A model generated the notes under the pieces. It saw nothing but the letters and a program-made list of their open reading frames with translations, did not search any database and was not told the DNA's origin. DNA of 64,000 nucleotides, from contig NZ_RJVK01000005.1 of assembly GCF_003752135.1 (NCBI RefSeq), positions 1 to 64,000 of the forward strand, given 5' to 3'. How positions within the stretch are numbered: the first letter of the stretch is position 1; every line of letters starts with the position of its first letter. The translations under genes and the position numbers were made by a program. Positions 9,714-50,534 of the stretch are shown piece by piece. The stretch comes from Caminibacter pacificus (GTDB lineage Bacteria > Campylobacterota > Campylobacteria > Campylobacterales > Nautiliaceae).

Positions 9714-10127
9714 TTAATCAACTATCTTAGACAAAAACTCAACGGGAGTTAAAACTTTGACTTTTGAAGTTTTAAATCCTTTTTTATCTCTCGTTATAAT
9801 AAAATCTATACCTTGCAAATAGGCACTTGAATATATTATACTATCCTCAAAATCATTAAATCCGGAATTAAGCGCTTCTAATAACACTTCTTTAGTAACG
9901 GGTGTAACATCAAAAAGTTTTAATAATTTATATACTACATCATCAGCCGTTTTTTTATTATATGCTTTTTGCACCAAATAATGAATCGTATCCATACTTG
10001 AAGCGCATAAGAAACCGTCAATTTTTCGTTTTTCAACAGCATTAAATATTTTTTTTATTTCTTTAAAATAGGGTTCTCTTTCCATAAAAAAATCAAGTAC
10101 GATATTTATATCTAATAATACTTTCAT
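9714..10127 (-). CDS. PIN-domain ribonuclease toxin (VapC-like)
   Basis: A 137-residue PIN-fold nuclease. The first acidic ligand is in MKVLLDINIVLDFF, followed by conserved acidic residues in FNDFEDSIIYSSAYL (about residues 90-100) and ITRDKKGF near the C-terminus. These make the three- to four-carboxylate metal site of PIN RNases. The start overlaps the upstream antitoxin gene by 4 bases (ATGA), a typical toxin-antitoxin arrangement. It belongs to the DUF6364-linked kind of PIN protein rather than classical VapBC. Confidence 0.82.
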   Translation of the reverse strand: MKVLLDINIVLDFFMEREPYFKEIKKIFNAVEKRKIDGFLCASSMDTIHYLVQKAYNKKTADDVVYKLLKLFDVTPVTKEVLLEALNSGFNDFEDSIIYSSAYLQGIDFIITRDKKGFKTSKVKVLTPVEFLSKIVD

Positions 10128-10351
10128 AAATATTTTTCCTCAAGATGTTTTTCATAATCTTCTTTTGAAATATTTTTATTTTTCAATATTCCGCTAAGTG
10201 AATTAGTAATAGGAAAATCTTCTTCTTTTTCAAGTAATGATTTAAAAAATTCGTTCACTAAACTTGATACGCTCGTATTTTTTTCTTTTGCATATTTTTT
10301 TATTTTTTCTATCAATTCTTTTTCACTATACAAAGTAATTTTTGCATTCAT
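10124..10351 (-). CDS. Antitoxin, DUF6364-like (ribbon-helix-helix type)
   Basis: A 75-residue protein with an N-terminal ribbon-helix-helix-like segment (AKITLYSEKELIEKIKKYAK) and TSVSSLVNEFFKSLLEK. A short acidic tail (ISKEDYEKHLEEKYL) probably wraps the toxin. It precedes and overlaps the PIN toxin gene, so it should be the cognate antitoxin and autorepressor. DUF6364 is the closest family I recognise. The ribosome-binding site is AAGG. Confidence 0.75.
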   Translation of the reverse strand: MNAKITLYSEKELIEKIKKYAKEKNTSVSSLVNEFFKSLLEKEEDFPITNSLSGILKNKNISKEDYEKHLEEKYL

Positions 10352-12500: not shown

Positions 12501-12812
12501 TTACTCCACAAGCATTATATTCAGAATTTTTTTAATTTCGGAAATAGTTTTTAAATCAATTTTTCCAAGCTGTTTAATAACTCTTTTTTTATCAATCGTT
12601 CTTATTTGATCTAACACAATGAAAGAATCATCTTTTATTTTAACTCTTGTGGGATATTCTTTTGATTTTGAAGTCATAGGAGCAATAATTAAGGTTTTTA
12701 TATTAAAATTCATTTCATTCGGGGATATAATTACACAAGGTCTAGTTTTTTTTATTTCGCTTCCTATTGTTGGGTCTAAATTGACAAGAACGATTGAATA
12801 TTGCTCATACAT
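12501..12812 (-). CDS. mazF: MazF/PemK-type mRNA interferase toxin
   Basis: The predicted product from ATG 12812 is 103 residues, the usual MazF size; I chose this start because ATGTATGA overlaps the antitoxin stop by 8 bases. Family segments are IVLVNLDPTIGSEIKKTRPCVIISP near the N-terminus, LIIAPMTSK in the middle and VLDQIRTIDKKRV with the conserved Asp-Gln. MazF cleaves mRNA at short sequences and is held inactive by its AbrB-fold partner encoded just upstream. Confidence 0.88.
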   Translation of the reverse strand: MYEQYSIVLVNLDPTIGSEIKKTRPCVIISPNEMNFNIKTLIIAPMTSKSKEYPTRVKIKDDSFIVLDQIRTIDKKRVIKQLGKIDLKTISEIKKILNIMLVE

Positions 12813-13035
12813 TAAAATCCCCATCAAGCATATCATCAATTAAAAGTTCATCATCTCCGTTTTTTCTCATTTCTTTAAAAGCTTCATTCCAACCTTTTCT
12901 CGGATTGAGCGGTTCAATAATCAATCTTTCACCTTCTTTTATGATTTTTACTTCATCACTATCTATTCTTAACTCTTTCGGGATTCTAATAGCTTGAGAA
13001 TTACCGTTATAAAAAACTTTTGCAATCGCTTCCAT
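12805..13035 (-). CDS. mazE: MazE-like AbrB-fold antitoxin
   Basis: A 76-residue antitoxin. The N-terminal swapped-hairpin DNA-binding domain reads AKVFYNGNSQAIRIPKELR, followed by EVKIIKEGERLIIEP. The acidic C-terminus (DDELLIDDMLDGDFNV) is the usual toxin-neutralising tail. The AbrB type with NGNSQAIRIP is often called VagC/MazE-like. It has its own strong promoter with GTAT repeats upstream, consistent with autorepression by the complex. Confidence 0.85.
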   Translation of the reverse strand: MEAIAKVFYNGNSQAIRIPKELRIDSDEVKIIKEGERLIIEPLNPRKGWNEAFKEMRKNGDDELLIDDMLDGDFNV

Positions 13036-31171: not shown

Positions 31172-31756
31172 TTAAATTTTCGGTAATTGCCAATTTTTTT
31201 TGTAAGCTATGAGTCTGATTATCACTCCCATAATTAAAGTTAATATCAAAATCTCCACATTCGTTCCGAAAATATATAAAAAAACACCGATTAAAATAGA
31301 TATAGTCGCATAAAATTTTTCTCTTAATATAAAAGGGATTTTATTTATAAGCATATCTCTAAGCATTCCTCCCCCAACAGCGGTAATAAGAGCCAAAAAT
31401 ACGACTCCGTATATGTTAAATCCGGCGTTTATACCGACAATAGCTCCCGAAATAGAAAAAGAACTAAGCCCTATCGCATCGCTAAGTACGAAAATAGTCT
31501 TATTTTCGACATCGAATTTATGGAGTTTAAAATAAAACCCTAAAACGAGCACTATCAAAACAAGCGTACCGGCCAAAAAATTACTAAAAGCAAAAATCGT
31601 CCTATCCGCCAAAACGTCTCTTATAATACCACCTCCAAGAGCCGTTAAAAAGGCACTCAAAATAACCCCTAACAAATCAAGCCTCTCTCTAACACCGATA
31701 ATAAATCCGCTGATAGAAAAAGCGATAATCCCTATAATATCGGCTATTTCTAACAT
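31172..31756 (-). CDS. TRIC-type cation channel family protein (UPF0126)
   Basis: A 194-residue membrane protein with six to seven helices made of two homologous halves. Each half carries the glycine-rich motif: [12 protein letters not shown] (about residue 41) and [12 protein letters not shown] (about 127). This is the UPF0126/YadS family, prokaryotic relatives of trimeric intracellular cation channels, likely potassium-conducting trimers. It overlaps ruvC by 7 bases and is co-transcribed with it. Confidence 0.9.
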
Positions 31757-37673: not shown

Positions 37674-40600
37674 ATGAAAAAAATAACGGGTATGTCGGTT
37701 GTTGCCTCTAGTTTATTGTTTGCACTTCAGTTTTCAAGTGTAAATATTATAAAGCAAAATGATGAAAATATAATTAAAAAAATAACTCCTACTACTATTT
37801 TTCAAACAAAAAAACTTAGTTTTCAAGATATTAAACCTGCTTTTGAAAATGTAAATTATGATAAAAGCACTATTATCGTCGAATTTAGAAATAAAAATAT
37901 TTCTTTGATTGGCAGCGAACTTAAATCGTTAGGCGTTAAAGTTAAATTTTTAAATTCTATAAACAAACACTCTTCTACGGCTTTTGGAATTTTAAAGTTA
38001 AATAGTACACAAAATGTTTTTAAAGTAATGAAAGAACTAAAAAGAAATCCTTTAGTAAAAGCGGTTTCTTTAAACTACGCAAGAAAACCTCAAGCGACTC
38101 CTAACGATCCTATGTTTACGAGTCAGTGGCATTTAGACGGAGCCGATAATAACGCAATTGATATTAACGTTCAAAACGTTTGGGATAAAAGTACCGGAAG
38201 TAGTGATGTAGTTGTGGCGATTTTCGATACGGGATTATCTCTTCAACACGAAGATTTAAAAGATAATATTTGGGTTAACGAACAAGAACTTAACGGAGAC
38301 CCAGGAGTTGATGACGACGGCAACGGATACGTCGATGACGTATACGGGTATGATTTTGCGTATGACTTAGACGGAAACAATGCACCTTTAACCGGAGATA
38401 TAGATTCTCACGGAACTCACGTTGCCGGAATTGTTGGTGCTGTCGGAGATAACGGAGTAGGTATTAGCGGTGTTAATTGGAATGTAAAGATTTTGTCTTT
38501 AAAAGTTTTCAGACCGAATTTGGGAGCGTATGACAGCGATATTTTAGAAGCGATAGATTATGTTTTGAAAATGAAAGACAATGGTGTAAATATCGTAGCT
38601 ATCAACGCTTCTTACGGAGGATTCGGAGGAGATGCCGATAACTCTCCTATGAAAGATGCGATTGCTTCTCTTGGAGATAAAGGAATAGTATTTTTTGCGG
38701 CCGCAGGAAATAGCGGAGTGGATAACGACGCTCTTTATTACGATTTGCCGGCACTTCCTGCAAGTTATAACGTGGATAATTTAGTAGCCGTTGCAGCGAC
38801 AGACGAAAATCAGCAATTGACTTATTTTTCTCAATACGGTAAAAAAACGGTTCAAGTTGGGGCTCCTGGAATTAATATCTTAAGTACGACCGATTTTATA
38901 GACGGAAATGATACTGGAAATCAAGATTTTGACGACGGATTTGAAAACGGGCTTGGCAATTGGACCGTAGATAGCGGGGATTGGAATACTACGGATTCGA
39001 AAGCTCATGAGGGGACTTATTCTCTTACGGATTCTCCAGGAGGAAATTACGACGATAGCGCAGGTGTAAAAGTTATTTATTCCGGAAATATAGATTTAAG
39101 TTCTGAAAAAGGAAATCCTATCGCGCTTGATTTTTGTATGAATAACGATTTGGCGGCGGGTGATTATTTGCTTGTAGGGTTTTATGATAAAAATAGCGGT
39201 GAAGTAAATGTTGTTTATTATACTACCGGTTCTACTAACGGGGATTGGAAATGTGTAGGTATTCCTATTCCTGAATATTATAAAACGGATGAATTTAAAA
39301 TCGTATACGGGTTATCTACGAACGGAGACGGTAATAACGGAGACGGCGTATATATCGATGACGTTAGGATAGGTGATTTTAATAATACCAACACTTACGA
39401 AGCGTGGGCAGGTACCTCTATGGCGACGCCTGTAGTTACGGGTACTTATGCACTTCTTAGTTCTTTAAACAACGAAGATATGATTTCTAAGATTTCAAGA
39501 GTTATCGGTGATGGCGATAGAGTGGATTTACCTATTATGGGTACGGTTGATGATGTGGAAAATATCGTAAACGGACCTACACCGCCATTTATTTACGGAA
39601 CTAAAAAAGTAATGAGCGTTACCGGAGATACTGCTACGATAAAAGTTGCAAATGCGGGTAGCGAGCCTAAAGTTTGGCTTGGAGATACTGAAGCTGAAGT
39701 TACTAATGTGGACGGGGAAAACATAACTTTCAAAGTGCCTGTAGATTCTCAAAGGGAAGTTATCGTTCAAAACGGAGATGTAAATTCTTCAAACACTTTA
39801 TATATTTCTAAATGGCAAATGATTGCGAATATGCCGAATCAGCACGCTTATGGTGGAGTTGCTGGATTATATGACGGAAAAATTTACGTTGCCGGAGGAG
39901 GAGATTTTCTTTATACGGGAGATTATACGAAAATTGACGTTTATGACCCAAGCAATGATAGTTGGGATAGTATAACTCCTTCTACTACCGAAGATAAATT
40001 ATATAACGGCGGAGCGGTTGTTGATGGTAAAATTTATTTAATAGGCGGTATAGATTTAAACGGAGATAATGAAACCGTAAAATATTATGATATTGCAAAC
40101 GATCAATGGGTAAACGGAGCAGATTTACCGCAACAAATCAGTTTCCCGAAAACTGTAGTTTTAGGAAAATATATCGGTATTATAGGTGGTTTTGATAGTA
40201 ATAATAACGTTTTAAGTAATGTGTATGCTTACGATACTTCAAATGATACGGTTACTCAGCTTGCAAGTATGAACGAGCCGAGAGTTAGACCGGCTGCTTG
40301 TGAGTTCGGTGGAAAAGTATATGTATTCGGAGGATATACTACAAACGGAGAAATTTCGGATACGGCGGAAGTTTATGACCCTGATAACGACACATGGACT
40401 AATATCGCTAATCTTCCTGGAAAATGGTATTTAGGAGAATGTGTAAACGTTGATGATAAATATATCTTGTTATTCGGTGGAGTTGATGAAAACGCACAAT
40501 CTATTGATGCGGTAGTTAAATATTATCCGGATGAAAACAGATACGAAGTTATGGATAACTCTCAATTTGAAAATATTGTTAATAGATTCAGTATTGCCGG

Positions 40601-40868
40601 TAGTCATGTTGTAACTGACGGAAGTGACGTTTATTACATAGGCGGATACAATATGTATCTATACGGAACTTATACTTCTGAAAAATTCGATACAAAAACT
40701 CTATTTGAGAATACAACTGATGATACCGGTACTAATACGGGAGATGATAATACCGGTGATGACGGAAGCAATGATGGCGGAAGCGGAGGAGGTTCCGCTC
40801 CGTTATTCGATTTTGCGACACTTCTTGCACTTCTTGGAGGAGCGCTATTAATCTTCAGAAGAAAATAA
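37674..40868 (+). CDS. Secreted subtilase (S8) with kelch repeats and a C-terminal sorting tail
   Basis: From ATG 37674 (AAAAAGGGGAAAGG upstream) the product is 1064 residues with a signal peptide, then an inhibitor-like prodomain to about 140. The protease triad is Asp185 in AIFDTG, His247 in DSHGTHVAG and Ser582 in GTSMATPVV. About 165 residues are inserted before the Ser: a jelly-roll-like domain (FDDGFENGLGNW to VYIDDVRIGDF). An IPT/TIG-like domain (about 640-730) and five to six kelch repeats (about 735-1010) follow. The last 35 residues are Gly/Ser-rich, then hydrophobic (FATLLALLGGALLIF), then RRK. That tail is the layout of exosortase or rhombosortase substrates, and an exosortase-like gene follows. 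Confidence 0.88.
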   Translation: MKKITGMSVVASSLLFALQFSSVNIIKQNDENIIKKITPTTIFQTKKLSFQDIKPAFENVNYDKSTIIVEFRNKNISLIGSELKSLGVKVKFLNSINKHSSTAFGILKLNSTQNVFKVMKELKRNPLVKAVSLNYARKPQATPNDPMFTSQWHLDGADNNAIDINVQNVWDKSTGSSDVVVAIFDTGLSLQHEDLKDNIWVNEQELNGDPGVDDDGNGYVDDVYGYDFAYDLDGNNAPLTGDIDSHGTHVAGIVGAVGDNGVGISGVNWNVKILSLKVFRPNLGAYDSDILEAIDYVLKMKDNGVNIVAINASYGGFGGDADNSPMKDAIASLGDKGIVFFAAAGNSGVDNDALYYDLPALPASYNVDNLVAVAATDENQQLTYFSQYGKKTVQVGAPGINILSTTDFIDGNDTGNQDFDDGFENGLGNWTVDSGDWNTTDSKAHEGTYSLTDSPGGNYDDSAGVKVIYSGNIDLSSEKGNPIALDFCMNNDLAAGDYLLVGFYDKNSGEVNVVYYTTGSTNGDWKCVGIPIPEYYKTDEFKIVYGLSTNGDGNNGDGVYIDDVRIGDFNNTNTYEAWAGTSMATPVVTGTYALLSSLNNEDMISKISRVIGDGDRVDLPIMGTVDDVENIVNGPTPPFIYGTKKVMSVTGDTATIKVANAGSEPKVWLGDTEAEVTNVDGENITFKVPVDSQREVIVQNGDVNSSNTLYISKWQMIANMPNQHAYGGVAGLYDGKIYVAGGGDFLYTGDYTKIDVYDPSNDSWDSITPSTTEDKLYNGGAVVDGKIYLIGGIDLNGDNETVKYYDIANDQWVNGADLPQQISFPKTVVLGKYIGIIGGFDSNNNVLSNVYAYDTSNDTVTQLASMNEPRVRPAACEFGGKVYVFGGYTTNGEISDTAEVYDPDNDTWTNIANLPGKWYLGECVNVDDKYILLFGGVDENAQSIDAVVKYYPDENRYEVMDNSQFENIVNRFSIAGSHVVTDGSDVYYIGGYNMYLYGTYTSEKFDTKTLFENTTDDTGTNTGDDNTGDDGSNDGGSGGGSAPLFDFATLLALLGGALLIFRRK

Positions 40869-40927
40869 TAATCTCTCTTGGGCTTTTCGCCCTCTATTTT
40901 TTATTAAACCCTCTTTTTACAAAGCTG

Positions 40928-41278
40928 ATGATATTGATTTTAAAGCTTTTATTGCCGTTTGAAAATATAAAAAATTACTTTGTTTTGGATAACGGCTTTA
41001 AAATTTATATTTTGGATTCTTGTAACGGATTTTTGGGAATTATTATATGGTTTTTGATATTGTTGTTTTTTGATATTAAAAGATTAAAATATTACTTTTT
41101 AGGGGCTTTGTTTTTGTATTTTGTAAATCTTTTGAGAGTTGTTTTTGTTGTTTTTCTTTCGAATATAAACGCTTCTTATTTTGATTTGGCTCATAATGTA
41201 TTGGGGAGAATTTTATATGTGGTTTGTTTTTTGTGTGCTCTTTGGTATGTAAAAACTACCTCATCACATTCATACTGA
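40928..41278 (+). CDS. Exosortase/archaeosortase-like transpeptidase, small form (start uncertain)
   Basis: The 116 residues from the first ATG form about four membrane helices and carry the exosortase catalytic pattern in order: Cys32 in DSCNGFLG, Arg70 in VNLLRVVFVV and His89 in LAHNVLGRILY. The frame stays open upstream into the end of the protease gene and encodes a further helix (ISLGLFALYFLLNPLF) without ATG, GTG or TTG. GGAGGAG at 40836-40842 precedes ATT 40847, which would give 143 residues. The partner substrate is probably the protease just upstream. It converges with gspF, overlapping 23 bases. Family membership is by motif, not overall similarity. Confidence 0.65.
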   Translation: MILILKLLLPFENIKNYFVLDNGFKIYILDSCNGFLGIIIWFLILLFFDIKRLKYYFLGALFLYFVNLLRVVFVVFLSNINASYFDLAHNVLGRILYVVCFLCALWYVKTTSSHSY

Positions 41279-42443
41279 ATATCGGTAAAAGCATTGATAT
41301 TACGATAAATCCTATAACTCCGCCCACTATCAAAATCATAATCGGTTCTAATAAAGAGAGCAGTATCGAAACTTTTGAGTGGTATTCTTGAAGATATATT
41401 TCTTTTAGATTTTGCATAATGTTTTTGCTTTCACCCGTTTCTTCTATCAAAGCTATCGCTTCAATAAAACTTATATCGGGAAAATTTTGTTTTTTAAGGG
41501 AAGTTGATAGTTTTTTACCTTCCAAAACTTCATTTAGGGCTTTTTGAAATTTCTCTTTTAATATTTCGTTATCTATCGTTTTCGAGGCTAAATTGACCGC
41601 ATTCATAAAATGGATTCCTGAATTTGTCAGAGTATACGTTAGCGATGAAAATCTGCCTAAATTTTTTGAGATGGATAATCTTTTTAAAAGAGGAGTTTTA
41701 AGAATTAAAGAGTCGATTATTTTTCTAAAAAACAATACTTTTTTATATGCAAACGAAAAGGCTAAAAGAGCGATAATAAAACCTACGGATAGTAAAATGT
41801 AATTATTTTGCAAAAAATGAGAAATTGAGATTGTTATTTTCGTAACGTTAGGCAAATTTTGGTTGAGATTTTGGAATATTTTTATTATTTTAGGCACTAC
41901 CGTATTCATCATAACTATTACGAGTATGAGGCTTATTATGATTATAAAGCTCGGATAGATTAAAGCTTGGGTCGATTTTGAGTTTATTTTATCTTCTTCT
42001 TGTAAAAATTTTGCGTTTTCAATAAGTATCAAATCCAAATTGGAGCTGTTTTGGGCTATTTGTATAGAGTGAATGATATATGGAGGTAGTTTTATGATTT
42101 TTTGGTTTTTAATCGCTTCACTTAACGTTTTTCCTTCTTTTATCTCATCTTCGATAAAAGATAGGAATTTTTGTAGTTTCTGATTTTGAGTTTGATTTTT
42201 TGCAAGATTAATCGCTTTTTTTAGAGGAATGGAAGCTTTTAAGTATAAGCCTATAACGTTTAAAATTTTAGCAAGCTCGCTTTTTTTTACGCTGCCAAAA
42301 GAGATATTAAAGCCTCTTTTTTGTTTGATATCTATAATTGCGATATTGCTTAGTTTTTGTTTGGCTTCTTGAATATCGGAAGCTTCTATTATGCCTTTTA
42401 CTTTTTTACCCTCTTTATTAAATCCTACGTATTTAAACTTCAA
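41256..42443 (-). CDS. gspF: Type II secretion inner-membrane protein GspF
   Basis: GspF is the polytopic platform protein of the type II secretion system. The 395-residue protein has two copies of the T2SSF domain: about residues 55-180 (ILNVIGLYLKASIPLKKAINLA) and about 260-385 (GRFSSLTYTLTNSGIHFMNAVNLA). Each is followed by membrane helices (IYPSFIIIISLILVIVMM and LEPIMILIVGGVIGFIVI). It is the last gene of the leftward gsp operon, 1 base after gspE. Confidence 0.93.
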   Translation of the reverse strand: MKFKYVGFNKEGKKVKGIIEASDIQEAKQKLSNIAIIDIKQKRGFNISFGSVKKSELAKILNVIGLYLKASIPLKKAINLAKNQTQNQKLQKFLSFIEDEIKEGKTLSEAIKNQKIIKLPPYIIHSIQIAQNSSNLDLILIENAKFLQEEDKINSKSTQALIYPSFIIIISLILVIVMMNTVVPKIIKIFQNLNQNLPNVTKITISISHFLQNNYILLSVGFIIALLAFSFAYKKVLFFRKIIDSLILKTPLLKRLSISKNLGRFSSLTYTLTNSGIHFMNAVNLASKTIDNEILKEKFQKALNEVLEGKKLSTSLKKQNFPDISFIEAIALIEETGESKNIMQNLKEIYLQEYHSKVSILLSLLEPIMILIVGGVIGFIVISMLLPIFSMNVMR

Positions 42444-42444
42444 C

Positions 42445-43956
42445 TCAGTCCTTTAATCCTACTCTAATCGCTTCTTTTAAAGAGGTCGTGCCGTTTAGTA
42501 CTTCTTCGAAAATCGCTTCTTTTAAAGTTTTCATTCCGTGTTTTATCATAGCGCTTTTGAGCTCTATATCGTTTGTGCCTTTTGCTATCATCTCTTTTAT
42601 TTCATCATTCATTATAAAAAGCTCTCCTACCGCTTTTCTTCCGACATATCCTGTAAAATTACACTTAGCGCAGCCGTTTGGTTTATAGATTTTTGAAATT
42701 TCGTATTTTTGCAAAAGAGGCTCTTTTTTAACGATTTTTTCAATTTCTTCCAAGCTGTCTTCCGTTTTGCAATCGCAAAGTTTTCTAACGAGTCTTTGAG
42801 ATAAAATACCTATCAGGCTTGATGAAATTAAAAAAGGCTCAATCCCTATATCCATAAGTCTCGTAATCGTAGCGGCTGCGTTATTGGTATGCAAAGTAGA
42901 TAGCATCAGATGTCCGGTAAGTGCCGCTTGGATGGCTATTGTGGCCGTTTCTTTATCTCTTATTTCACCTACCATTATGATATCGGGGTCTTGGCGCAGA
43001 ATACTTCTTAAGGCTTTTGCAAAAGTTAGTCCCACTTTGTTATTTACTTGAATTTGGTTGATATTGTCCGCTTTGTATTCTACAGGGTCTTCTACGGTTA
43101 TAATATTTTTTTCCGGTGTCGAGATTGTCTGTAAGAAGCTATGAAGGGTGGTCGATTTTCCGCTTCCGGTAGGTCCCGTAACCAAAATCATTCCGTATGA
43201 ATGCTCCAAAAGCTCTTTAAAACCTTGTGTTATTTCTTCGTTAAAGCCGAGCTCTTTTAGACTCGGAATATCCTCACTCTCCATCAAAATCCTCATAACG
43301 GCTTTTTCGCCGAAATAGGTAGGAATGATAGAGACCCTGATATCGGTCGTTTTATTTGCTATTTTTATCTGACATCTTCCGTCTTGGGGGACTCTTTTTT
43401 CCGAAATATCCAAGTTAGAAATAACTTTTATTCTGTTAATTACAAGTTCTGTCAGTTTTTTTTGGATTTTTGCCTGAGTTATAAGCACGCCGTCTATTCT
43501 GAATCTGATAAGTCCGAAAAGTTCGTGTGTTTCTATGTGTATGTCGCTCGCTCTTTTTTTGATGGCTTGAAAAAACATAGAGTTTACGAATTTTATAACA
43601 GGAGCTGAGTTTTCAGAGTTTAGAATATCAACACTCTCTTTTACGAAATCTTCAAGTGAGAGTTCTTCTTCTATCACTTCATCGATATTGTCTTCAAGGT
43701 CTTTTTTTGTTTTTACTTCTAAATATTGATTCAAAAGCCTATTAAAAGACTCTTCGTCAGTCATAATTATTTCAAAAGGAATGGAGAGTTTATTGTAGTA
43801 GTTTAGTGCATCTACATAGTCGTTTTCTTTTGTTACGAAAACTTTTTTATCTTCTAAGAGTGCGGGAAGAAGAGAAAATTTAATTCCCTCTTCCAAATTA
43901 AAATTCTCAAGCTCTATCGCTTTTGGGTTTATATTTTTAACGCTCTTCATAATCAT
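42445..43956 (-). CDS. gspE: Type II secretion ATPase GspE
   Basis: GspE is the cytoplasmic hexameric ATPase that drives pseudopilus assembly. The 503-residue protein has an N-terminal N2-like domain, Walker A GPTGSGKSTTLHSFL (about residue 256), the Asp box VEDPVEYKADNINQIQV, Walker B DPDIIMVGEIRDKETA and the His box LTGHLMLSTLHTN. The tetracysteine zinc segment near the end (CDCKTEDS... KPNGCAKCNFTGYVGR) marks GspE/PilB. It overlaps gspD by 20 bases. Confidence 0.95.
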   Translation of the reverse strand: MIMKSVKNINPKAIELENFNLEEGIKFSLLPALLEDKKVFVTKENDYVDALNYYNKLSIPFEIIMTDEESFNRLLNQYLEVKTKKDLEDNIDEVIEEELSLEDFVKESVDILNSENSAPVIKFVNSMFFQAIKKRASDIHIETHELFGLIRFRIDGVLITQAKIQKKLTELVINRIKVISNLDISEKRVPQDGRCQIKIANKTTDIRVSIIPTYFGEKAVMRILMESEDIPSLKELGFNEEITQGFKELLEHSYGMILVTGPTGSGKSTTLHSFLQTISTPEKNIITVEDPVEYKADNINQIQVNNKVGLTFAKALRSILRQDPDIIMVGEIRDKETATIAIQAALTGHLMLSTLHTNNAAATITRLMDIGIEPFLISSSLIGILSQRLVRKLCDCKTEDSLEEIEKIVKKEPLLQKYEISKIYKPNGCAKCNFTGYVGRKAVGELFIMNDEIKEMIAKGTNDIELKSAMIKHGMKTLKEAIFEEVLNGTTSLKEAIRVGLKD

Positions 43957-45730
43957 ATCCGTTTGCCGGGTCGTAAGTTATTTGTTTTTTTGGCTTTTTG
44001 ATTGTTATTTTGTGTTTTTTGATGTACTCTTTTACGAATTTTTTCTCAAGTGCGTTTAGTTTTGATAGTGTCATTCTAAGCTTATCCAAATCGCTGCTTT
44101 TTTTGATGATATAAGGTGTTAGGATAATTGCAAGGGTCGTTTTGTCGTTGTTTACCTCTTTGTGTCTGAAAATAGCTCCGATAATCGGAATATCTCCAAG
44201 AAGCGGTACTTTTTTTATAGTGATGTCTTTGTTGTCTTTTACAAGTCCTCCGATAATTATGCTTTGGCCGTTGTTTACGATTGTAGTCGTTTTGATTTCT
44301 CTTTTGGAAGTGGTAGGAAGCCCTACGACGGAGCCCGGGAGTATATCTTCGATAACGGATTCGACTTTTAAAGATACTTTGTTATCGCTGTCGATTCTCG
44401 GGGTGATTTTTAAAGTAAGACCGATATCTTGTCTTGTATAGCTCTCGCTCGTAACTGTGGAAGTGGTTTTTCCGGTAAGTACCGATACCGTTTTTCCTAC
44501 GTAAATGGTTGATGGTGTGTTGTTTATACATAAAATCGAAGGTTCGCTAAGTTTTTTAGCCGCACCTAAAGTTTCCAATAAATCAAGAGTGGCCCCAAGA
44601 GCAATACCTTGTTTTAGTGTCGGAATTGCAAGCCCTAAATCCGCTACGTTAAATGCGACGGCAGGACCTCCCAAATTCGCACTTAGAGTATATAATCCGT
44701 TTTCTCCGCTACCTGCGTAAATTCCGAATTTGGCTCCTATTTGAGAAGCTTTAGAGTTACTGATTTCTAAGATTTTAGCTTTAACGTAAACTTGTTGTTT
44801 TGGTATGTCAAGTGCGCTTATTACCATTTTTAGCATCTGTATCTGTTTTAAATCACCTACGATAATAAGAGAATTGGTCTCTTTTGCCGCCGTAATGGAT
44901 GGCGGATTTTTTTTGAATTTTACTTTTATTATGTTTTGAAGTACTTTTGCCACGTTCGTGACGTCCGAATTTTTTAGAGTGATTACTTGAGTTATTTGGT
45001 TTGTAGGTTTAGGTCTGATGTCTAAGTTTTTTGCGATTGAGTAGAGTTTGTTTACGACTCTTTTTTCACCTACGATAATTAAGGTATTGGAATTTTCGTC
45101 GGCTATGATTTTGTATTGGTAGATTTTGTTATCGAATATTCCGTTTGCTATATCTTTGATTTTGCCGTAAATATTGGCGGCGTCGGTATATTTTAAGTGA
45201 ATGAATTTGACGTCTTTTGCTTTTTGGTTGTCTATTTTTGCGATAATTTCTTTTATAAGTTTTATGTTTTTAGGATAGTCTGTTACGATTAAGAGGTTTT
45301 TTGGGATATTCAGGACTATTTTTCCGTATCTGCTTACCAAATAATTTACAAGAGTATAAGCGTCTCTTGCCGAGATGTTATGAAGAGGAATAATAGCCGT
45401 TTGTATTTCGTAAAATTTAGAATTTAGAGGAGGCGCTTCTTTTATAGCTTCGGAACTTCTTACCACTTTTAGGACGTTTCCGTCTTTGATAATCGTATAT
45501 CCTTTGCTTTTTAATACGCTAAGCAAAATATCATAAACTTCGCTTTCGCTAACGGGTTTGACCGATACGAAATTGACCTTCCCGACAAGCGGTTGGGTTA
45601 TGAGGATGTTTTTATCAGTTATTTTGGCAACCATTCTTATGAAGTCGTTGATATCCAAATTTTGAAAATTAAGATTGACTTTTGCAAACGTCAATACGAA
45701 AATCAGTGGTAAGAGTTTAATCAATTTCAT
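43937..45730 (-). CDS. gspD: Type II secretion secretin GspD
   Basis: GspD forms the outer-membrane gate. The 597-residue protein has a signal peptide, an N0 domain (LNFQNLDINDFIRMVAKITDKNILI), two or three N1-N3 domains (IIPLHNISARDAYTLVNYLV, KFIHLKYTDAANIYGKI, QVITLKNSDVTNVAKVLQNI) and the secretin core. Core motifs are EPSILCINNTPSTIYVG, GLTLKITPRI and VPLLGDIPIIGAIFRH. No S-domain is seen, so a pilotin may be unnecessary or different. It overlaps gspC by 14 bases. Confidence 0.95.
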   Translation of the reverse strand: MKLIKLLPLIFVLTFAKVNLNFQNLDINDFIRMVAKITDKNILITQPLVGKVNFVSVKPVSESEVYDILLSVLKSKGYTIIKDGNVLKVVRSSEAIKEAPPLNSKFYEIQTAIIPLHNISARDAYTLVNYLVSRYGKIVLNIPKNLLIVTDYPKNIKLIKEIIAKIDNQKAKDVKFIHLKYTDAANIYGKIKDIANGIFDNKIYQYKIIADENSNTLIIVGEKRVVNKLYSIAKNLDIRPKPTNQITQVITLKNSDVTNVAKVLQNIIKVKFKKNPPSITAAKETNSLIIVGDLKQIQMLKMVISALDIPKQQVYVKAKILEISNSKASQIGAKFGIYAGSGENGLYTLSANLGGPAVAFNVADLGLAIPTLKQGIALGATLDLLETLGAAKKLSEPSILCINNTPSTIYVGKTVSVLTGKTTSTVTSESYTRQDIGLTLKITPRIDSDNKVSLKVESVIEDILPGSVVGLPTTSKREIKTTTIVNNGQSIIIGGLVKDNKDITIKKVPLLGDIPIIGAIFRHKEVNNDKTTLAIILTPYIIKKSSDLDKLRMTLSKLNALEKKFVKEYIKKHKITIKKPKKQITYDPANGYDYEER

Positions 45731-46439
45731 AGTGTAATACCTTTATTTGATAGTTTCTTTTAATAGTCAAATCGATTTGATTAAAATTATCAATAGAATT
45801 ATAAGCCCTCCAAGCATCAGCGTCGCTTTTTAGAGGAATATCGTTTATTTCGAGTATATAATCGCCTTTTTTCAATCCTAATTTATCGAAAATGCTTTTA
45901 GGTTTTACGTATGTGACCAAATATCCGTTTTTTGTTTTTATTATACCTATTTCTTTCCACACTTTAGCGAGGTTTCTTTTGTAGTTTTCAAGAGTCTCTT
46001 TTTTAATAGTTTTTACATCCGGGACGTTGTAAATTTTAGGGGTTTTTATTTTTTTGAATGTTAAGATGTATTTTTTGGAGTTTTTTTCGAAAACGGCCGA
46101 ATTTTGGTTGATTTTTACGAGTTTGTAGCCGTTAATGGATTTGTTTAAATCCACAAAATAAGTTTTTTTGTTTTTTTCAAGCACTACAAATCCTCTGCCG
46201 TCGTTTTGATATACGGCTTTTAGCGTGAAATTTTGCAAAGTATCGTATCTATTTGTTACTATTTGAGGTTTTGTTTTTGAAAATATTCTTCTTAAGTCTA
46301 TATCGAAATATAAAAACTCTTTTTTTATATTTACGAAAATTTTAGGAGCGTGAGGCAAAAATATCTCAACTACACTCCATAAAAAAAGAGCACCGACAAG
46401 ACCTAAAACGAATAATAAAATATTTTTAATAGCGCTCAT
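45717..46439 (-). CDS. gspC: GspC-like type II secretion protein with PDZ domain
   Basis: GspC links the inner-membrane platform to the secretin. The 240-residue protein has one N-terminal membrane helix (about 6-24) and a homology region with FTLKAVYQNDGRGFVVLEKN and a VDLNKSINGYKLVKI element, the HR domain pattern. A C-terminal PDZ domain follows (VTYVKPKSIFDKLGLKKGDYILEINDIPL). The PDZ is thought to take part in substrate choice. It lies between gspN- and gspD-type genes, as in other systems. Identification rests on layout and position. Confidence 0.82.
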   Translation of the reverse strand: MSAIKNILLFVLGLVGALFLWSVVEIFLPHAPKIFVNIKKEFLYFDIDLRRIFSKTKPQIVTNRYDTLQNFTLKAVYQNDGRGFVVLEKNKKTYFVDLNKSINGYKLVKINQNSAVFEKNSKKYILTFKKIKTPKIYNVPDVKTIKKETLENYKRNLAKVWKEIGIIKTKNGYLVTYVKPKSIFDKLGLKKGDYILEINDIPLKSDADAWRAYNSIDNFNQIDLTIKRNYQIKVLHYEID

Positions 46440-46890
46440 CTAAAACATATCCTTTTTCAGTTTTTTTGAGAAATCCTCTGATTGATGAAGGAGGATTTTT
46501 AAAGGTTATATGGATTTTTCTCTCTTTTAAATTTATAAAACCGTTTAAGTTGTCTCCGAAAATAAAAGCTTTTATAGGATAAAACGGAGTAAAAATTATT
46601 TTTATGTTTTTAAGAGTTAAATTTATCGATTTTACGTTTAAGTCGTAAATGTCGGCTTGGTTGTATAAAATAAAAGGAAAAATTTTCACTTTTTTTATAT
46701 CGGCCGAATCTATTGAGGCATAAAAAATCTTTACGTTTTGTAAATTTAGAGAAATCGGGGTTTGTTTTGTTTGAGCCTCAATATTTATTTGCGGGATTAA
46801 TTCCTGGATTTTATAAAAAATGGCTTTTTTAGGCATAAAAATTACAGCCCCGATATAAAACCCCAAAAGAAAAATTAAAATCTTTTTCAT
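46426..46890 (-). CDS. GspN-like type II secretion protein
   Basis: A 154-residue protein with one N-terminal membrane helix (MKKILIFLLGFYIGAVIF) and a beta-rich periplasmic part with repeated hydrophobic strands (ISLNLQNVKIFYASIDSADIKKV, SINLTLKNIKIIF, KIHITFKNPPSSIRGFLKK). The pattern and the place between the M- and C-type genes fit GspN, but it is much shorter than the roughly 250-residue classical GspN. It overlaps its neighbours by 4 and 14 bases. Confidence 0.6.
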   Translation of the reverse strand: MKKILIFLLGFYIGAVIFMPKKAIFYKIQELIPQINIEAQTKQTPISLNLQNVKIFYASIDSADIKKVKIFPFILYNQADIYDLNVKSINLTLKNIKIIFTPFYPIKAFIFGDNLNGFINLKERKIHITFKNPPSSIRGFLKKTEKGYVLDERY

Positions 46891-47234
46891 TTTTCAATCT
46901 CCAAAACCGCTTTTAGGGTTTTGTTTTTTTCTATGTTTAGTGAGATGATTTTGGAATTTTTAAGTACTCTATTTATTTCTCTAAGTTTATAAGAATTTAG
47001 GTTATCGCACGTTAGGGTTATTTTTCCGTCGTTTTGATTTGCTTTGCAGTATCTCGGGATTATAGGTTTGAATCTTGTTTTTAGATACTCTATCTCTTTT
47101 GCTGTTTTTATGATTTTTGTCGAATATTGGTATTCTTCTTTTAGTTGGTTTAGGGTTTTTAGGTACTCTTTAAATAAAAAAGCTGTTATCAAAACCGCCA
47201 AAATCCCAAGTAAAATCACTACTCTTTTATTCAT
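46887..47234 (-). CDS. GspM-like type II secretion protein
   Basis: A 115-residue protein with one membrane helix (VVILLGILAVLITAFLF), a coiled-coil-like segment (LKTLNQLKEEYQYSTKI) and a small ferredoxin-like domain with one Cys pair (YCKANQNDGKITLTCDN). This is the GspM/PilO layout. It sits between the L-like and N-like genes with 4-base overlaps. The assignment comes from topology and order, since sequence similarity in this class is low. Confidence 0.62.
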   Translation of the reverse strand: MNKRVVILLGILAVLITAFLFKEYLKTLNQLKEEYQYSTKIIKTAKEIEYLKTRFKPIIPRYCKANQNDGKITLTCDNLNSYKLREINRVLKNSKIISLNIEKNKTLKAVLEIEK

Positions 47235-48082
47235 TTCATACTCGCTTTATAAATTCCGTTTTGGTATGAGGAATTTAAAATCTCAAATCTTTTTTTAAAG
47301 TAACCGTCTAAATTTTTCGAAGTTTTGATTACCACTTCATACGTTTTATCAAACGATAGTTTTTTGAAAAAATCCCCTTTATTAAGAGGTGTTTTTGTTA
47401 CGAATTCCAAATCTTTTTTTATTTTTACCTGTTTTTGATATTCGGTTTTTAGGTTTTGAAGAATTGAATTTAGCTCAAAAGATGTTTTTGGTAATTTGTA
47501 TTCGCTTAAAATTTTATCTTTTTGGTTTTGTATGGAGGTTAGCTCTTTTTTTAGCGAAAAGATTTTTAAAATAATAGCCGAATTTAAAAGTATAAATATC
47601 AAAACCGAAGATATCAGTATCGATTTGTCTATTTCGAGGCGGTTTATGAGATTAAATTTTTTGTTTGAGAGTTTTATTTCTTTTAGAATTTCTTCCGCAC
47701 TTTTGCAATTTCCGCTTTGAGGAAAACAAAAAAGCAAATCGTCAATTTTTCTAATCGAATGGTTTTGGTCTATTTTTACGCACTCATAATCAAAAAATTC
47801 CACTTGTGCTATTCTTATCGAATTTATGAATTTTTGAGGGATATTTAATTTGAGGTCTTTTTCAAAAGCGAGTGCGTAAAATTTTCCGTTTAGCTCTATC
47901 GCATCGAAGATATATTTTTTTTCGTCGAGTTTGAATTGGGTTTTTGCTATTTTTTTGGCGTCTTTTAGGGATTTTATCGGAATATCTATTTTTTTTATCC
48001 AATAAAATTCGGGCGAGAGGATAACATTTACGGGTTCTTTTATCTCTTCTTTGAAAAATTTAGTATATAGGATCGACCTCAA
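47231..48082 (-). CDS. GspL-like type II secretion protein
   Basis: A 283-residue protein with a cytoplasmic actin-like/PilM-type half (about 1-145: VILSPEFYWIKKIDIPIKSLKDAKKIAKTQFKLDEKKYIFDA in parts), one membrane helix (ILISSVLIFILLNSAIIL) and a periplasmic coiled coil plus ferredoxin-like end. This is the GspL plan, with the first half reduced. It should couple GspE to GspM. It overlaps the K-like gene by 23 bases. Confidence 0.62.
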   Translation of the reverse strand: MRSILYTKFFKEEIKEPVNVILSPEFYWIKKIDIPIKSLKDAKKIAKTQFKLDEKKYIFDAIELNGKFYALAFEKDLKLNIPQKFINSIRIAQVEFFDYECVKIDQNHSIRKIDDLLFCFPQSGNCKSAEEILKEIKLSNKKFNLINRLEIDKSILISSVLIFILLNSAIILKIFSLKKELTSIQNQKDKILSEYKLPKTSFELNSILQNLKTEYQKQVKIKKDLEFVTKTPLNKGDFFKKLSFDKTYEVVIKTSKNLDGYFKKRFEILNSSYQNGIYKASMK

Positions 48083-48848
48083 CTCTTAAAACCTTTTTAT
48101 TTTTTATATCGTAAATTATATTTATCTTTTGTTTGGAATGATAAGCATAATCTATTCCTATTTCGACGTAGAAATTTTTTGCTTTCTCAAAAGATATTAT
48201 ATTAAAATCGGTTTCGTTTTTTTCATTGAGAGTAATTATATCCTTTTGCGGATTATAAAGTTGCGAAATATAGAAATTAAAGTATTTTTTCCAAGGTACT
48301 TTTTTTACATTTTTATCAAGGGTCTGTTTTTGATAGTAGTTTAGTAGTTCTGAAAATTGTTTTTTGGTGTAAATTTTTCCGTTTTGAAAAAAAGGATTTT
48401 CGTTTATTATTTCGCTGTATGCGCTTCTTTCGATTTTATCTTTATCTATCGTATCCAAAATCAAATCTTTTAAATAAATAGGGTCTTTAATATCGTATTT
48501 TAAAGCCAAAAAATCGATTAATTTATCTATGTTTTTGTCTATTTTTTTGTTTTTGTAATAGTCGTTGATGTTTATCGTAGAAATAGCCGATATGGAAATA
48601 ACACCTCTAAATTCGCCGTTTTTTGAAGTTATAGGAAATTCTCCCAAGATTTTATTTAAATCTTCGGATGAGTTGATATCCAAATTTTTCAAGGTATTTA
48701 GAGTATCGCTAATTATTACGCTGTTTTGAGAGATAAAAGTGTAATCTTTTGAGGTTATTTTTTGGTAGTTTTTTATTATCATACCGATAATTACAAAAGC
48801 GGCCGTTAAAAATATAAGTGTTAAAAAAAGAGCTATTGATTTTCTCAT
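48060..48848 (-). CDS. GspK-like minor pseudopilin
   Basis: A 262-residue protein with an N-terminal hydrophobic helix (RKSIALFLTLIFLTAAFVIIG) and a large soluble part containing INDYYKNKKIDKNIDKLIDFLA, which recalls the DINxA(S) turn of GspK. The expected Gly at -1 of the prepilin site is Ser, and Glu at +5 is absent, as usual for GspK. It is the first gene of the leftward operon, divergent from gspG with a 39-base gap. It should cap the pseudopilus tip. Confidence 0.65.
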   Translation of the reverse strand: MRKSIALFLTLIFLTAAFVIIGMIIKNYQKITSKDYTFISQNSVIISDTLNTLKNLDINSSEDLNKILGEFPITSKNGEFRGVISISAISTININDYYKNKKIDKNIDKLIDFLALKYDIKDPIYLKDLILDTIDKDKIERSAYSEIINENPFFQNGKIYTKKQFSELLNYYQKQTLDKNVKKVPWKKYFNFYISQLYNPQKDIITLNEKNETDFNIISFEKAKNFYVEIGIDYAYHSKQKINIIYDIKNKKVLRVEVDPIY

Positions 48849-48887
48849 AAATACCTTTTTTGATAAAATTATACAAAAAGGTCAAAG

Positions 48888-49307
48888 ATGAAAAAGGCTT
48901 TCAGTTTAATTGAGCTTATGATTGTTATAATTATTTTAGGATTAATTGCCGGACTTGTGATACCTAATATCATCGGACAAGGCGAGCAGGCAAAAGAGAA
49001 ATTGGTATGCGTTCAGATGAAAAATCTAAAAAACGCGCTTGATAGTTTTAAAATTCAAGAAGGTACCTATCCTACGACTCAAGAAGGCCTAAAAGCTCTC
49101 ATTCAAAATCCGAATCCCCAAAAATATAAAAACTATCCCGAAGGAGGATTTTTAAATTCAAACAAACTACCGCGCGACCCGTGGGGACATCCGTATATTT
49201 ACGTAAATAACGGAGGAAAAATAGATATCATATCTCTTGGTGCCGACGGAAAAGAGGGCGGCAGCGGCGAGAATAAAGATATAAGACTCTCAGAGTGTCA
49301 GCAATAA
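48888..49307 (+). CDS. gspG: Major pseudopilin GspG
   Basis: GspG is the main pseudopilus subunit. The 139-residue protein starts MKKAFSLIELMIVIIILGLIA; the prepilin site here has Ala before the Phe, followed by Glu5. The calcium-binding loop LPRDPWGHPYIYVNNGG and the end IDIISLGADGKEGGSGENKDI are classic GspG. The G-H-I-J genes run rightwards with overlapping ends. A prepilin peptidase (gspO/pilD) is not in the window and must be encoded elsewhere. Confidence 0.95.
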   Translation: MKKAFSLIELMIVIIILGLIAGLVIPNIIGQGEQAKEKLVCVQMKNLKNALDSFKIQEGTYPTTQEGLKALIQNPNPQKYKNYPEGGFLNSNKLPRDPWGHPYIYVNNGGKIDIISLGADGKEGGSGENKDIRLSECQQ

Positions 49308-49723
49308 AAAGAGCTTTTACTTTAATCGAGCTTATTTTAGTAATCTTTTTAATCTCTCTTGTCTCTTTTTTGGTGATAAAACTTCCGAGTTACTCGAAAA
49401 CTTATACTTTCAAAGACATAAGGGCTCTTTTATACCCAGGCGGAGAGCTTTATATTGATAAAAATTCGGTTTATATAATAAAAAACGGCAAAAAAAAGAA
49501 AATAAACTTCAGATACTCCGAATTTCAAACTTACGATAACAATTTCAATCCTTTGAAATTTAAAAATCATCTTTTCGTTTATAAAATGAAAAACGGAGTA
49601 GGAGATTCTTTGATAGTAAAAGAGAAAAAAGTCTATTTTTTCAAACCTCTTTGGGTTAGGGAATTTTCTTCTTTAAAAGACGCTAAAGATTATATGAATT
49701 CTCTAAACGAGGCGTTAAAATGA
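49295..49723 (+). CDS. gspH: GspH-like minor pseudopilin
   Basis: A 142-residue pseudopilin starting at GTG 49295 inside the end of gspG. The N-terminus AFTLIELILVIFLISLVSFLV has the prepilin helix with Glu5. The soluble part is beta-rich (YPGGELYIDKNSVYIIKNGK, KVYFFKPLWVREF). Its order after gspG and its size fit GspH. The -1 residue is again Ala, as in gspG, suggesting a peptidase that accepts Ala. Confidence 0.75.
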   Translation: MSAIKRAFTLIELILVIFLISLVSFLVIKLPSYSKTYTFKDIRALLYPGGELYIDKNSVYIIKNGKKKKINFRYSEFQTYDNNFNPLKFKNHLFVYKMKNGVGDSLIVKEKKVYFFKPLWVREFSSLKDAKDYMNSLNEALK

Positions 49724-50085
49724 GAGCTTTTACACTTATTGAGGTGCTTATATCCGTGATGATTTTGTTTTTTGCGGCGGCTGTTTTTTTGAATTTGAGT
49801 TCCGATTCTTTTAGTTTGTATGAAAAATTTAAAAAAAGAAACGATTTTTTGCTCGATTCGTCTCTTGTTTTTTGCGAAAAAAGAGGCGGAAGACTTGATG
49901 AGGTGGTGAGAGATTTTAATATTACGGACGATTTTACGCTTGATATTTTAAAAAGAAAAAAGATAAATTTCGAAAAAAGAATCGACTTAAAAACCCAAAT
50001 CGAAAATAAAAACATCCAAATAAACAGACTCGTATCTTTTGATAAGGAAAACAGAGCCGAAGTGTTCGGAGTGGAGGTAAAATGA
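49720..50085 (+). CDS. gspI: GspI-like minor pseudopilin
   Basis: A 121-residue pseudopilin (MRAFTLIEVLISVMILFFAAA) with Ala at -1 and Glu5. The rest is a small, charged domain ending VSFDKENRAEVFGVEVK. It overlaps the H- and J-type genes by 4 bases each (ATGA). It would form the tip complex with the J and K proteins. Confidence 0.72.
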   Translation: MRAFTLIEVLISVMILFFAAAVFLNLSSDSFSLYEKFKKRNDFLLDSSLVFCEKRGGRLDEVVRDFNITDDFTLDILKRKKINFEKRIDLKTQIENKNIQINRLVSFDKENRAEVFGVEVK

Positions 50086-50534
50086 GAAAATCCTTTACGT
50101 TACTTGAAGTTTTGATATCCACTCTTCTTTTGGCTTTTGTGTTTGTGGCTATGAGCAATATCTTAACTTCTCTAAAAAGAACCGAGTCTATTTTGCAAAG
50201 CAAAAAAGAAGACAAAAGCGACTATCTTATAAAAACTCTCTATTACGACATAATAAACGCCGATGAAATAAACGTCTCAAAAACCGCAAACCCCAAAATC
50301 GATACCATAACGCTTAGAACTTTTAATTCGTTATATAAAATCCCGAAACCCTACGTAAAATGGGTGGTATATAAAGGTGCTTTGATAAGAGCTGAGAGTG
50401 TTGATAATTTCAAAGAAAATGTCGGTACTATAGATAAATTCGCAAAAAATGTTAAAATATTCAAAATTTATAAAAAAGACGGGAAATTTTTGATTTTTGT
50501 CAATAATAAATTTTTCGAATTTAAAGGGCGCTGA
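50082..50534 (+). CDS. gspJ: GspJ-like minor pseudopilin
   Basis: A 150-residue pseudopilin, MRKSFTLLEVLISTLLLAFVFVA, with Ser at -1 and Glu5. The soluble part has NADEINVSKT, ITLRTFNSLYKIPKPYVKW and VRAES-like segments of GspJ type. It ends the rightward operon; its stop overlaps the thyX start by one base, so thyX may be read from the same message. Confidence 0.72.
   Translation: MRKSFTLLEVLISTLLLAFVFVAMSNILTSLKRTESILQSKKEDKSDYLIKTLYYDIINADEINVSKTANPKIDTITLRTFNSLYKIPKPYVKWVVYKGALIRAESVDNFKENVGTIDKFAKNVKIFKIYKKDGKFLIFVNNKFFEFKGR

What the first reader, a model, noticed from the sequence alone, without database searches (positions are those of the whole stretch)
37674..50534. Candidate dedicated system: type II secretion, exosortase-like enzyme and one kelch-subtilase substrate
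A secreted subtilase with a GGSGGGS-hydrophobic-RRK tail is followed at once by a small membrane protein with the ordered Cys, Arg and His of exosortases. It converges on a full K-L-M-N-C-D-E-F / G-H-I-J type II secretion locus. In Vibrio, GlyGly-CTERM proteases such as VesB are processed by rhombosortase and use type II secretion; here an exosortase-like protein would replace rhombosortase. Exosortases usually serve polysaccharide-linked PEP-CTERM sets, so a one-substrate pair beside a secretion system is unusual. The kelch domain suggests surface adhesion as well as proteolysis.
Basis: partly seen in the sequence, partly recalled or inferred. Interest (0 to 1): 0.82.

Follow-up and report, generated by a model that had tools for sequence, protein, structure and literature searches.

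The report
Exosortase paired with T2SS-linked kelch subtilase
Beside a protein-secretion machine, this bacterium carries a secreted protease with a removable tail and a small membrane enzyme that probably cuts it; related bacteria place the same kind of enzyme inside the secretion locus, hinting at how such proteins cross the outer membrane.

Summary
The small protein matches the exosortase/archaeosortase signature TIGR04178 (42.8 bits, cut-off 23), and its Cys, Arg and His are invariant in 30 homologues. It reaches no named exosortase type. Its true start probably lies upstream of the ATG, overlapping the protease gene. The protease tail matches neither GlyGly-CTERM nor any other NCBIfam tail model. 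The genome shows no other such tail, no rhombosortase over cut-off and no second exosortase.

No other of 21 genomes of the family has the pair. Two genomes of another family do have an adjacent exosortase and subtilase near T2SS, with the same tail motif (G-[SG]-A-P-L-x-D). In a third family the exosortase often lies inside the T2SS locus, and a C-terminal tail (about SD-x-x-x-A-[LM], helix, RREE) occurs in 22 of 27 exosortase-positive genomes but 0 of 11 T2SS-positive, exosortase-negative relatives.

Best reading: the exosortase frees a Sec-exported, membrane-held substrate so that T2SS can carry it out. Cleavage, T2SS passage and surface retention are inferred. It is a new variant of a known kind, and bears on the unsolved question of how exosortase substrates cross the outer membrane.

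The parts
37674..40868 (+). Sec-exported kelch-subtilase, proposed sole exosortase substrate (1064 aa from ATG 37674)
   Evidence: Peptidase_S8 E 7e-38, Kelch_1 E 2e-35; signal-peptide-like N-terminus; homologues with the same tail motif next to exosortases in G129 and G180
40776..40865 (+). C-terminal tripartite tail: Gly/Ser-rich motif with GGGSAPLFD, hydrophobic helix, RRK
   Evidence: sequence; tail profile A2 finds only this tail in the genome and one each in G129 and G180, four in G025; no NCBIfam tail model matches over cut-off
40847..41278 (+). exosortase (143 aa if started at ATT 40847; 116 aa from ATG 40928); catalytic residues C59, R97, H116
   Evidence: TIGR04178 over cut-off; invariant C/R/H; homology upstream of the ATG; AlphaFold pLDDT 83, pTM 0.73, with the first helix at residues 3-35
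40836..40840 (+). possible ribosome-binding site GGAGG, six bases before ATT 40847 (may be chance: it also encodes Gly-Gly of the tail helix)
   Evidence: inspection
41256..42443 (-). gspF, convergent with and overlapping the exosortase gene
   Evidence: TIGR02120 250 bits, below equivalog cut-off 424 but best match
42445..43956 (-). gspE
   Evidence: TIGR02533 556.5 bits, best match, just below cut-off 630
43937..45730 (-). gspD secretin
   Evidence: TIGR02517 366 bits, over cut-off 351
45717..46439 (-). gspC candidate (PDZ domain)
   Evidence: PDZ_6 E 6e-8; position
46426..46890 (-). gspN candidate
   Evidence: position and homologues in the same order; no profile match
46887..47234 (-). gspM candidate
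   Evidence: position and homologues in the same order; no profile match
47231..48082 (-). gspL candidate
   Evidence: position and homologues in the same order; no profile match
48060..48848 (-). gspK candidate
   Evidence: position and homologues in the same order; no profile match
48888..49307 (+). gspG major pseudopilin
   Evidence: TIGR01710 140.7 bits, over cut-off 88.85
49295..49723 (+). gspH-like pseudopilin
   Evidence: weak N-methylation motif; position
49720..50085 (+). gspI-like pseudopilin
   Evidence: weak N-methylation motif; position
50082..50534 (+). gspJ-like pseudopilin
   Evidence: weak N-methylation motif; position

Best explanation
A dedicated exosortase-substrate pair that works with the adjacent type II secretion system. 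The subtilase is exported by Sec and held in the inner membrane by its C-terminal helix. The exosortase cuts in or beside the GGGSAPL motif with its Cys, assisted by Arg and His, and may transfer the new C-terminus to an unknown lipid or glycan. The freed, folded protease is then carried over the outer membrane by T2SS and probably stays at the cell surface. Shown here: the genes, the profile matches, the invariant catalytic residues, the shared tail motif, adjacency recurring across families, and co-occurrence. Inferred: cleavage, transfer, use of T2SS, and surface retention.
For: Exosortase signature over cut-off and invariant C/R/H in 30 homologues. Single tail in the genome; no rhombosortase over cut-off. 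In G129 and G180 (another family) the exosortase overlaps the start of a subtilase homologue ending GSAPLVD or GGAPLID plus a hydrophobic helix, a few kb from T2SS genes. In the 21 genomes of this family plus the 18 of genus g7, exosortase and this subtilase are both present in 3 and both absent in 36 (Fisher p 1e-4). Exosortase genes lie within about 15 kb of T2SS genes in 20 of 30 genomes, in 6 of 9 genera (chance about 1e-8 if genera were independent). All 30 have gspG. In family f6 a related tail occurs in 22 of 27 exosortase-positive and 0 of 11 exosortase-negative, T2SS-positive genomes (p 4e-6, or 1e-5 without the three profile seeds); these matches all end at or near the protein's C-terminus. 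Precedents in which the sorted protein uses T2SS: rhombosortase (PMC6219818, abstract) and myxosortase (PMC11980579).
Against: No experiment. The exosortase lacks a canonical start codon for its conserved N-terminus and is a very long branch (5.17 changes per column), so it could be decaying. It is the only one among 21 genomes of the family, where T2SS exists without it. In several genera (g9, g33, g65, part of g78 and g55) the exosortase is not near T2SS. Genomes in the counts are related, so the p-values overstate independence. The own tail differs from the f6 tails (A5 does not hit it).
Confidence: 0.66

Rival explanations
1. The exosortase does process the subtilase tail, but T2SS is not the route over the outer membrane; the gene neighbourhood reflects shared regulation or chance, and the product stays in the periplasm or leaves another way.
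For: Other exosortase systems sit with polysaccharide loci and their outer-membrane route is unknown (PMC12188702). In genera g9, g33 and g65 the exosortase is far from T2SS.
Against: Neighbourhood recurs in 6 genera of 3 families in different arrangements; every exosortase genome of this type has T2SS.
Confidence: 0.15
2. The tail is only a membrane anchor and the exosortase acts on something else.
For: The tail matches no curated sorting-signal model.
Against: Adjacent pair with the same tail motif in another family; strict co-occurrence in 39 genomes; exosortase-linked tails in f6.
Confidence: 0.08
3. The exosortase gene here is a degenerating remnant and the pair no longer works.
For: No ATG/GTG/TTG for the conserved N-terminus; long branch; sole case in its family.
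Against: Frame open over the whole length; all catalytic residues kept; AlphaFold model confident from the first residues; substrate frame and tail intact.
Confidence: 0.08
4. A rhomboid or other protease processes the tail as in GlyGly-CTERM or JDVT-CTERM systems.
For: Gly/Ser-rich motif resembles GlyGly-CTERM; subtilase homologues in f6 carry JDVT-CTERM.
Against: TIGR03501 does not match anywhere in the genome; no rhombosortase over cut-off; the tail lacks the Cys of JDVT-CTERM and does not match that model.
Confidence: 0.03

Closest known systems
Exosortase/archaeosortase family (TIGR04178; nearest named types XrtX, XrtG, ArtE, XrtH)
   Same: signature match over cut-off, invariant Cys/Arg/His, tripartite C-terminal tail on the partner protein
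   Different: below every named type's cut-off (31.7 of 170 bits for XrtX); tail has no PEP motif; sits by T2SS and not in a visible polysaccharide locus; one substrate
GlyGly-CTERM / rhombosortase (Vibrio VesB; PMC3237569, PMC6219818)
   Same: Gly/Ser-rich motif, helix, basic end; secreted serine protease; T2SS; enzyme and target adjacent where there is one target
   Different: TIGR03501 does not match; the enzyme is an unrelated exosortase; no rhombosortase over cut-off in the genome
MYXO-CTERM / myxosortase (PMC11980579)
   Same: C-terminal tail removed in the inner membrane, then T2SS to the surface
   Different: tail here has no invariant Cys; enzyme family differs
JDVT-CTERM (NF033191)
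   Same: carried by subtilase homologues in related genomes
   Different: own tail has no match and no Cys; no such partner enzyme was looked for here

Membership tests
Exosortase/archaeosortase family (TIGR04178) | profile match over curated cut-off | tested here: met
   42.8 bits against 23
Exosortase/archaeosortase family (TIGR04178) | conserved Cys, Arg, His | tested here: met
   C59, R97, H116 invariant in 30 sequences
Exosortase/archaeosortase family (TIGR04178) | cognate protein with signal peptide and C-terminal motif-helix-basic tail | tested here: met
   adjacent subtilase; same tail motif beside exosortases in G129 and G180
Exosortase/archaeosortase family (TIGR04178) | transpeptidase or protease activity | not testable with these tools
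   needs experiment
Named exosortase types (XrtA, XrtH, XrtX and others) | type-specific cut-off | tested here: not met
   no named type reaches its cut-off
PEP-CTERM/EPS exosortase systems | PEP motif in the tail | tested here: not met
   tail GGGSAPLFD; no PEP-CTERM model match
PEP-CTERM/EPS exosortase systems | polysaccharide genes in the neighbourhood | not tested
   none evident in the window by inspection of the ORF list, but no profile or genome-wide search was done
GlyGly-CTERM / rhombosortase | TIGR03501 tail match | tested here: not met
   no match at E<=10 in the genome
GlyGly-CTERM / rhombosortase | rhombosortase TIGR03902 in the genome | tested here: not met
   best 13 bits against cut-off 84
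JDVT-CTERM | NF033191 match with Cys motif | tested here: not met
   own tail no match; f6 subtilases match
Type II secretion system | secretin GspD and major pseudopilin GspG | tested here: met
   both over equivalog cut-offs
Type II secretion system | GspE and GspF | tested here: inconclusive
   best matches but below equivalog cut-offs
Type II secretion system | GspC, K, L, M, N and minor pseudopilins | tested here: inconclusive
   PDZ domain in C and weak pilin motifs in three; K, L, M, N by position and homology only

The most novel reading that the evidence does not exclude
Members of this order (Campylobacterales by one named relative) have a branch of exosortases that forms part of the type II secretion locus: the sorting enzyme is the inner-membrane release step for T2SS cargo, with at least two new tail classes (GGGSAPLxD-like here and in G129/G180; SD-x-x-x-A-[LM]...RREE in family f6). 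This would give exosortase substrates a defined route over the outer membrane.
Probability: 0.5. Interest if true: 0.76.

Novelty: new variant of a known kind. Interest (0 to 1): 0.64.

Why it matters
How exosortase-processed proteins cross the outer membrane is unsettled; a 2025 study of a cyanobacterial exosortase calls it 'currently unclear' (PMC12188702). Recurrent placement of exosortase genes in T2SS loci, with a matching tail in the same genomes, names a route that one double-mutant experiment could test. It would also be a third unrelated kind of sorting enzyme (after rhombosortase and myxosortase) found working ahead of T2SS, suggesting that cut-and-release from the inner membrane is a general entry step for membrane-held T2SS cargo. 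The one-enzyme, one-substrate pair is a small system for finding what, if anything, an exosortase attaches to the cut end.

Tried and rejected

GlyGly-CTERM model on the genome: no match. Rhombosortase: only noise.

Search for the exosortase among named genomes: own protein found nothing; the G129/G180 alignment found only the G129 MAG. Viral contigs: nothing. An 8-row alignment was too diverse for this search.

Solved structures: none by sequence or fold (all E>1).

Exosortase tree: own sequence is a long branch and its place is unresolved, so no claim of transfer between families. Subtilase catalytic-domain tree: tail types do not form resolved groups, which fits exchange of tails but does not prove it.

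A claim that exosortase presence follows T2SS presence was weakened: T2SS is common (187 of 399 genomes), so co-presence alone says little; the linkage and the tail counts carry the argument.
Full report
WHAT IS THERE. The locus reads: gyrB, a 132-aa ORF, a kelch-subtilase (37674-40868, +), a small membrane protein, then a convergent T2SS locus (gspF to gspK candidates on the minus strand, gspG to gspJ on the plus strand), then genes I read as thyX and rsmB (these two names are from inspection, not from a profile). The subtilase has Peptidase_S8 and Kelch_1 domains, a signal-peptide-like start and the tail GGSGGGSAPLFDFATLLALLGGALLIFRRK. It is the only ORF in the window whose end looks like a sorting tail by a simple hydrophobicity rule; the other ORF flagged, at 31172-31756, appears to be a membrane protein.

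THE SMALL PROTEIN IS AN EXOSORTASE. It matches TIGR04178 at 42.8 bits (cut-off 23) and no named exosortase type at its cut-off. Thirty sequences from the order keep C59, N60, G61, N94, R97, F112 and H116. A profile made without it scores 58.6 bits on the 143-residue version and 52.4 on the version from ATG 40928, and the added alignment covers a conserved LN-x-x-x-T-K-L segment. The AlphaFold model (pLDDT 83, pTM 0.73) places a confident helix at residues 3-35, spanning the ATG. So the frame very probably starts upstream, inside the end of the protease gene. No ATG, GTG or TTG is available there. ATT 40847 after GGAGG is my candidate by inspection; the GGAGG also encodes glycines of the tail helix, so this is uncertain.

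ONE SUBSTRATE, NO RHOMBOSORTASE. A profile of five tails finds one tail in this genome even at E<=10. GlyGly-CTERM does not match; the best rhombosortase-like hit is 13 bits against a cut-off of 84. No second homologue of this exosortase and no second match to TIGR04178 was found.

NOT CONSERVED IN THE FAMILY, BUT RECURRENT OUTSIDE IT. Of 21 genomes of the family only this one passes the TIGR04178 cut-off, though nine others carry gspG and several show the same T2SS locus beside the thyX-like gene. In another family two genomes, G129 (MAG JAMOOM010000012.1, Campylobacterales bacterium) and G180, have an exosortase overlapping the start of a subtilase homologue (46-47% identical over the N-terminal and catalytic part) whose tail reads GSAPLVD or GGAPLID and then a hydrophobic helix, with T2SS genes a few kb away. 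Among the 21 genomes here plus the 18 of that genus, exosortase and this subtilase are both present in three and both absent in 36 (p 1e-4; relatedness not corrected).

THE BROADER PATTERN. In 399 genomes of the order a profile of eight exosortases finds 30 genomes with this type, counting one broken copy in G325. All 30 have gspG, against 187 of 399 overall. In 20 of the 30, from six of nine genera, the exosortase lies within about 15 kb of T2SS genes. In many f6 genomes it sits between the pseudopilin genes and gspF, convergent with the last pseudopilin and overlapping its end (for example L062, L064, L066); in others it is next to a gspJ-like gene (L076) or about 1 kb from gspE (L022, L063). 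If genera were independent this linkage has a chance near 1e-8; they are not fully independent, but the arrangements differ. A profile of three tails from f6 then found C-terminal tails in 22 of 27 f6 genomes with the exosortase and in none of 11 f6 genomes with T2SS but without it (p 4e-6, or 1e-5 leaving out the seeds). The contrast holds within genera g9, g55 and g65. Every listed match ends within 16 residues of a stop codon. The motif is roughly S-D-x-x-x-A-[LM], a helix, then a charged end such as RREE, often after a Cys-containing stretch.

SWAPPED TAILS. Subtilase homologues in f6 (G130, G161, G277, G301, G307) carry GGGC-[TS]-YNP tails; the three tails scanned match JDVT-CTERM over cut-off. 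G025 has GGGSGGGSAGGF instead. The catalytic-domain tree does not group tail types. In four relatives of this family a gene in or next to the T2SS locus encodes a large lipoprotein with an LIGC-, VVGC- or IIGC-type lipobox. Membrane-held cargo therefore seems to be a theme of these T2SS loci (inference).

MECHANISM. Shown: genes, profile matches, invariant residues, shared tail, adjacency and co-occurrence. Inferred: Sec export, holding by the tail helix, cutting by the exosortase, release to T2SS, passage over the outer membrane, and surface retention. Precedents for the later steps are VesB and rhombosortase (PMC6219818) and TraA and myxosortase (PMC11980579), both with T2SS. For exosortases the outer-membrane route is stated as unclear (PMC12188702). 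In five literature searches of the open library I found no paper that links exosortases to T2SS loci in this group; subscription papers are not held, so absence is not proven. One paper supposes T2SS export for a PEP-CTERM protein without test (PMC9850573).

VERDICT. The finding is a new variant of a known kind (exosortase sorting). Its value is less the single pair than the recurring tie between exosortase, tail and T2SS.

Noticed in passing
L130-L151, L153-L159 (C-termini): A C-terminal tail class, about SD-x-x-x-A-[LM] plus helix plus RREE, found with a three-sequence profile in exosortase-positive f6 genomes only; looks like a new sorting signal, often on very large surface-type proteins.
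   Followed up: partly
L022:8766-9389, L023:11287-11910, L063:12651-13274, L079:3848-4546, L024:4768-5412, L077:13221-13880, L073:1-435: A small outer-membrane beta-barrel gene (OMP_b-brl in the two tested) lies next to the exosortase or the tail-bearing giant gene in several f6 genomes; possible partner of the surface protein.
   Followed up: partly
L111:129-7286, L112:6111-7628, L113:9690-12074, L115:2692-4986: In family relatives without exosortase the T2SS locus adjoins large lipoproteins (lipobox then Gly run) with almost no Pfam match; possible T2SS-linked surface lipoproteins.
   Followed up: partly
L028:2727-6619, L029:9251-10878: A more distant exosortase group (families f18 and f21) lies next to proteins ending VPLSNSSKLLMIFGIIALVGFFYQRRE or VPISDFAKVLLFLSILYIGLYYSREL; another probable tail class.
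   Followed up: no
G325:C192:10134-10597: The T2SS-linked exosortase of G325 is broken by several stops or a frameshift in that assembly.
   Followed up: no
L108:5035-14312; L109:11412-15902: Second T2SS/type IV pilus-like cluster in two genus relatives, one of them beside genes that look like nucleotide-sugar genes.
   Followed up: no
window 9714-10351 and 12501-13035: Two small gene pairs that look like toxin-antitoxin modules (PIN-like with a ribbon-helix-helix-like partner; MazF-like with an AbrB-like partner), judged by eye only.
   Followed up: no
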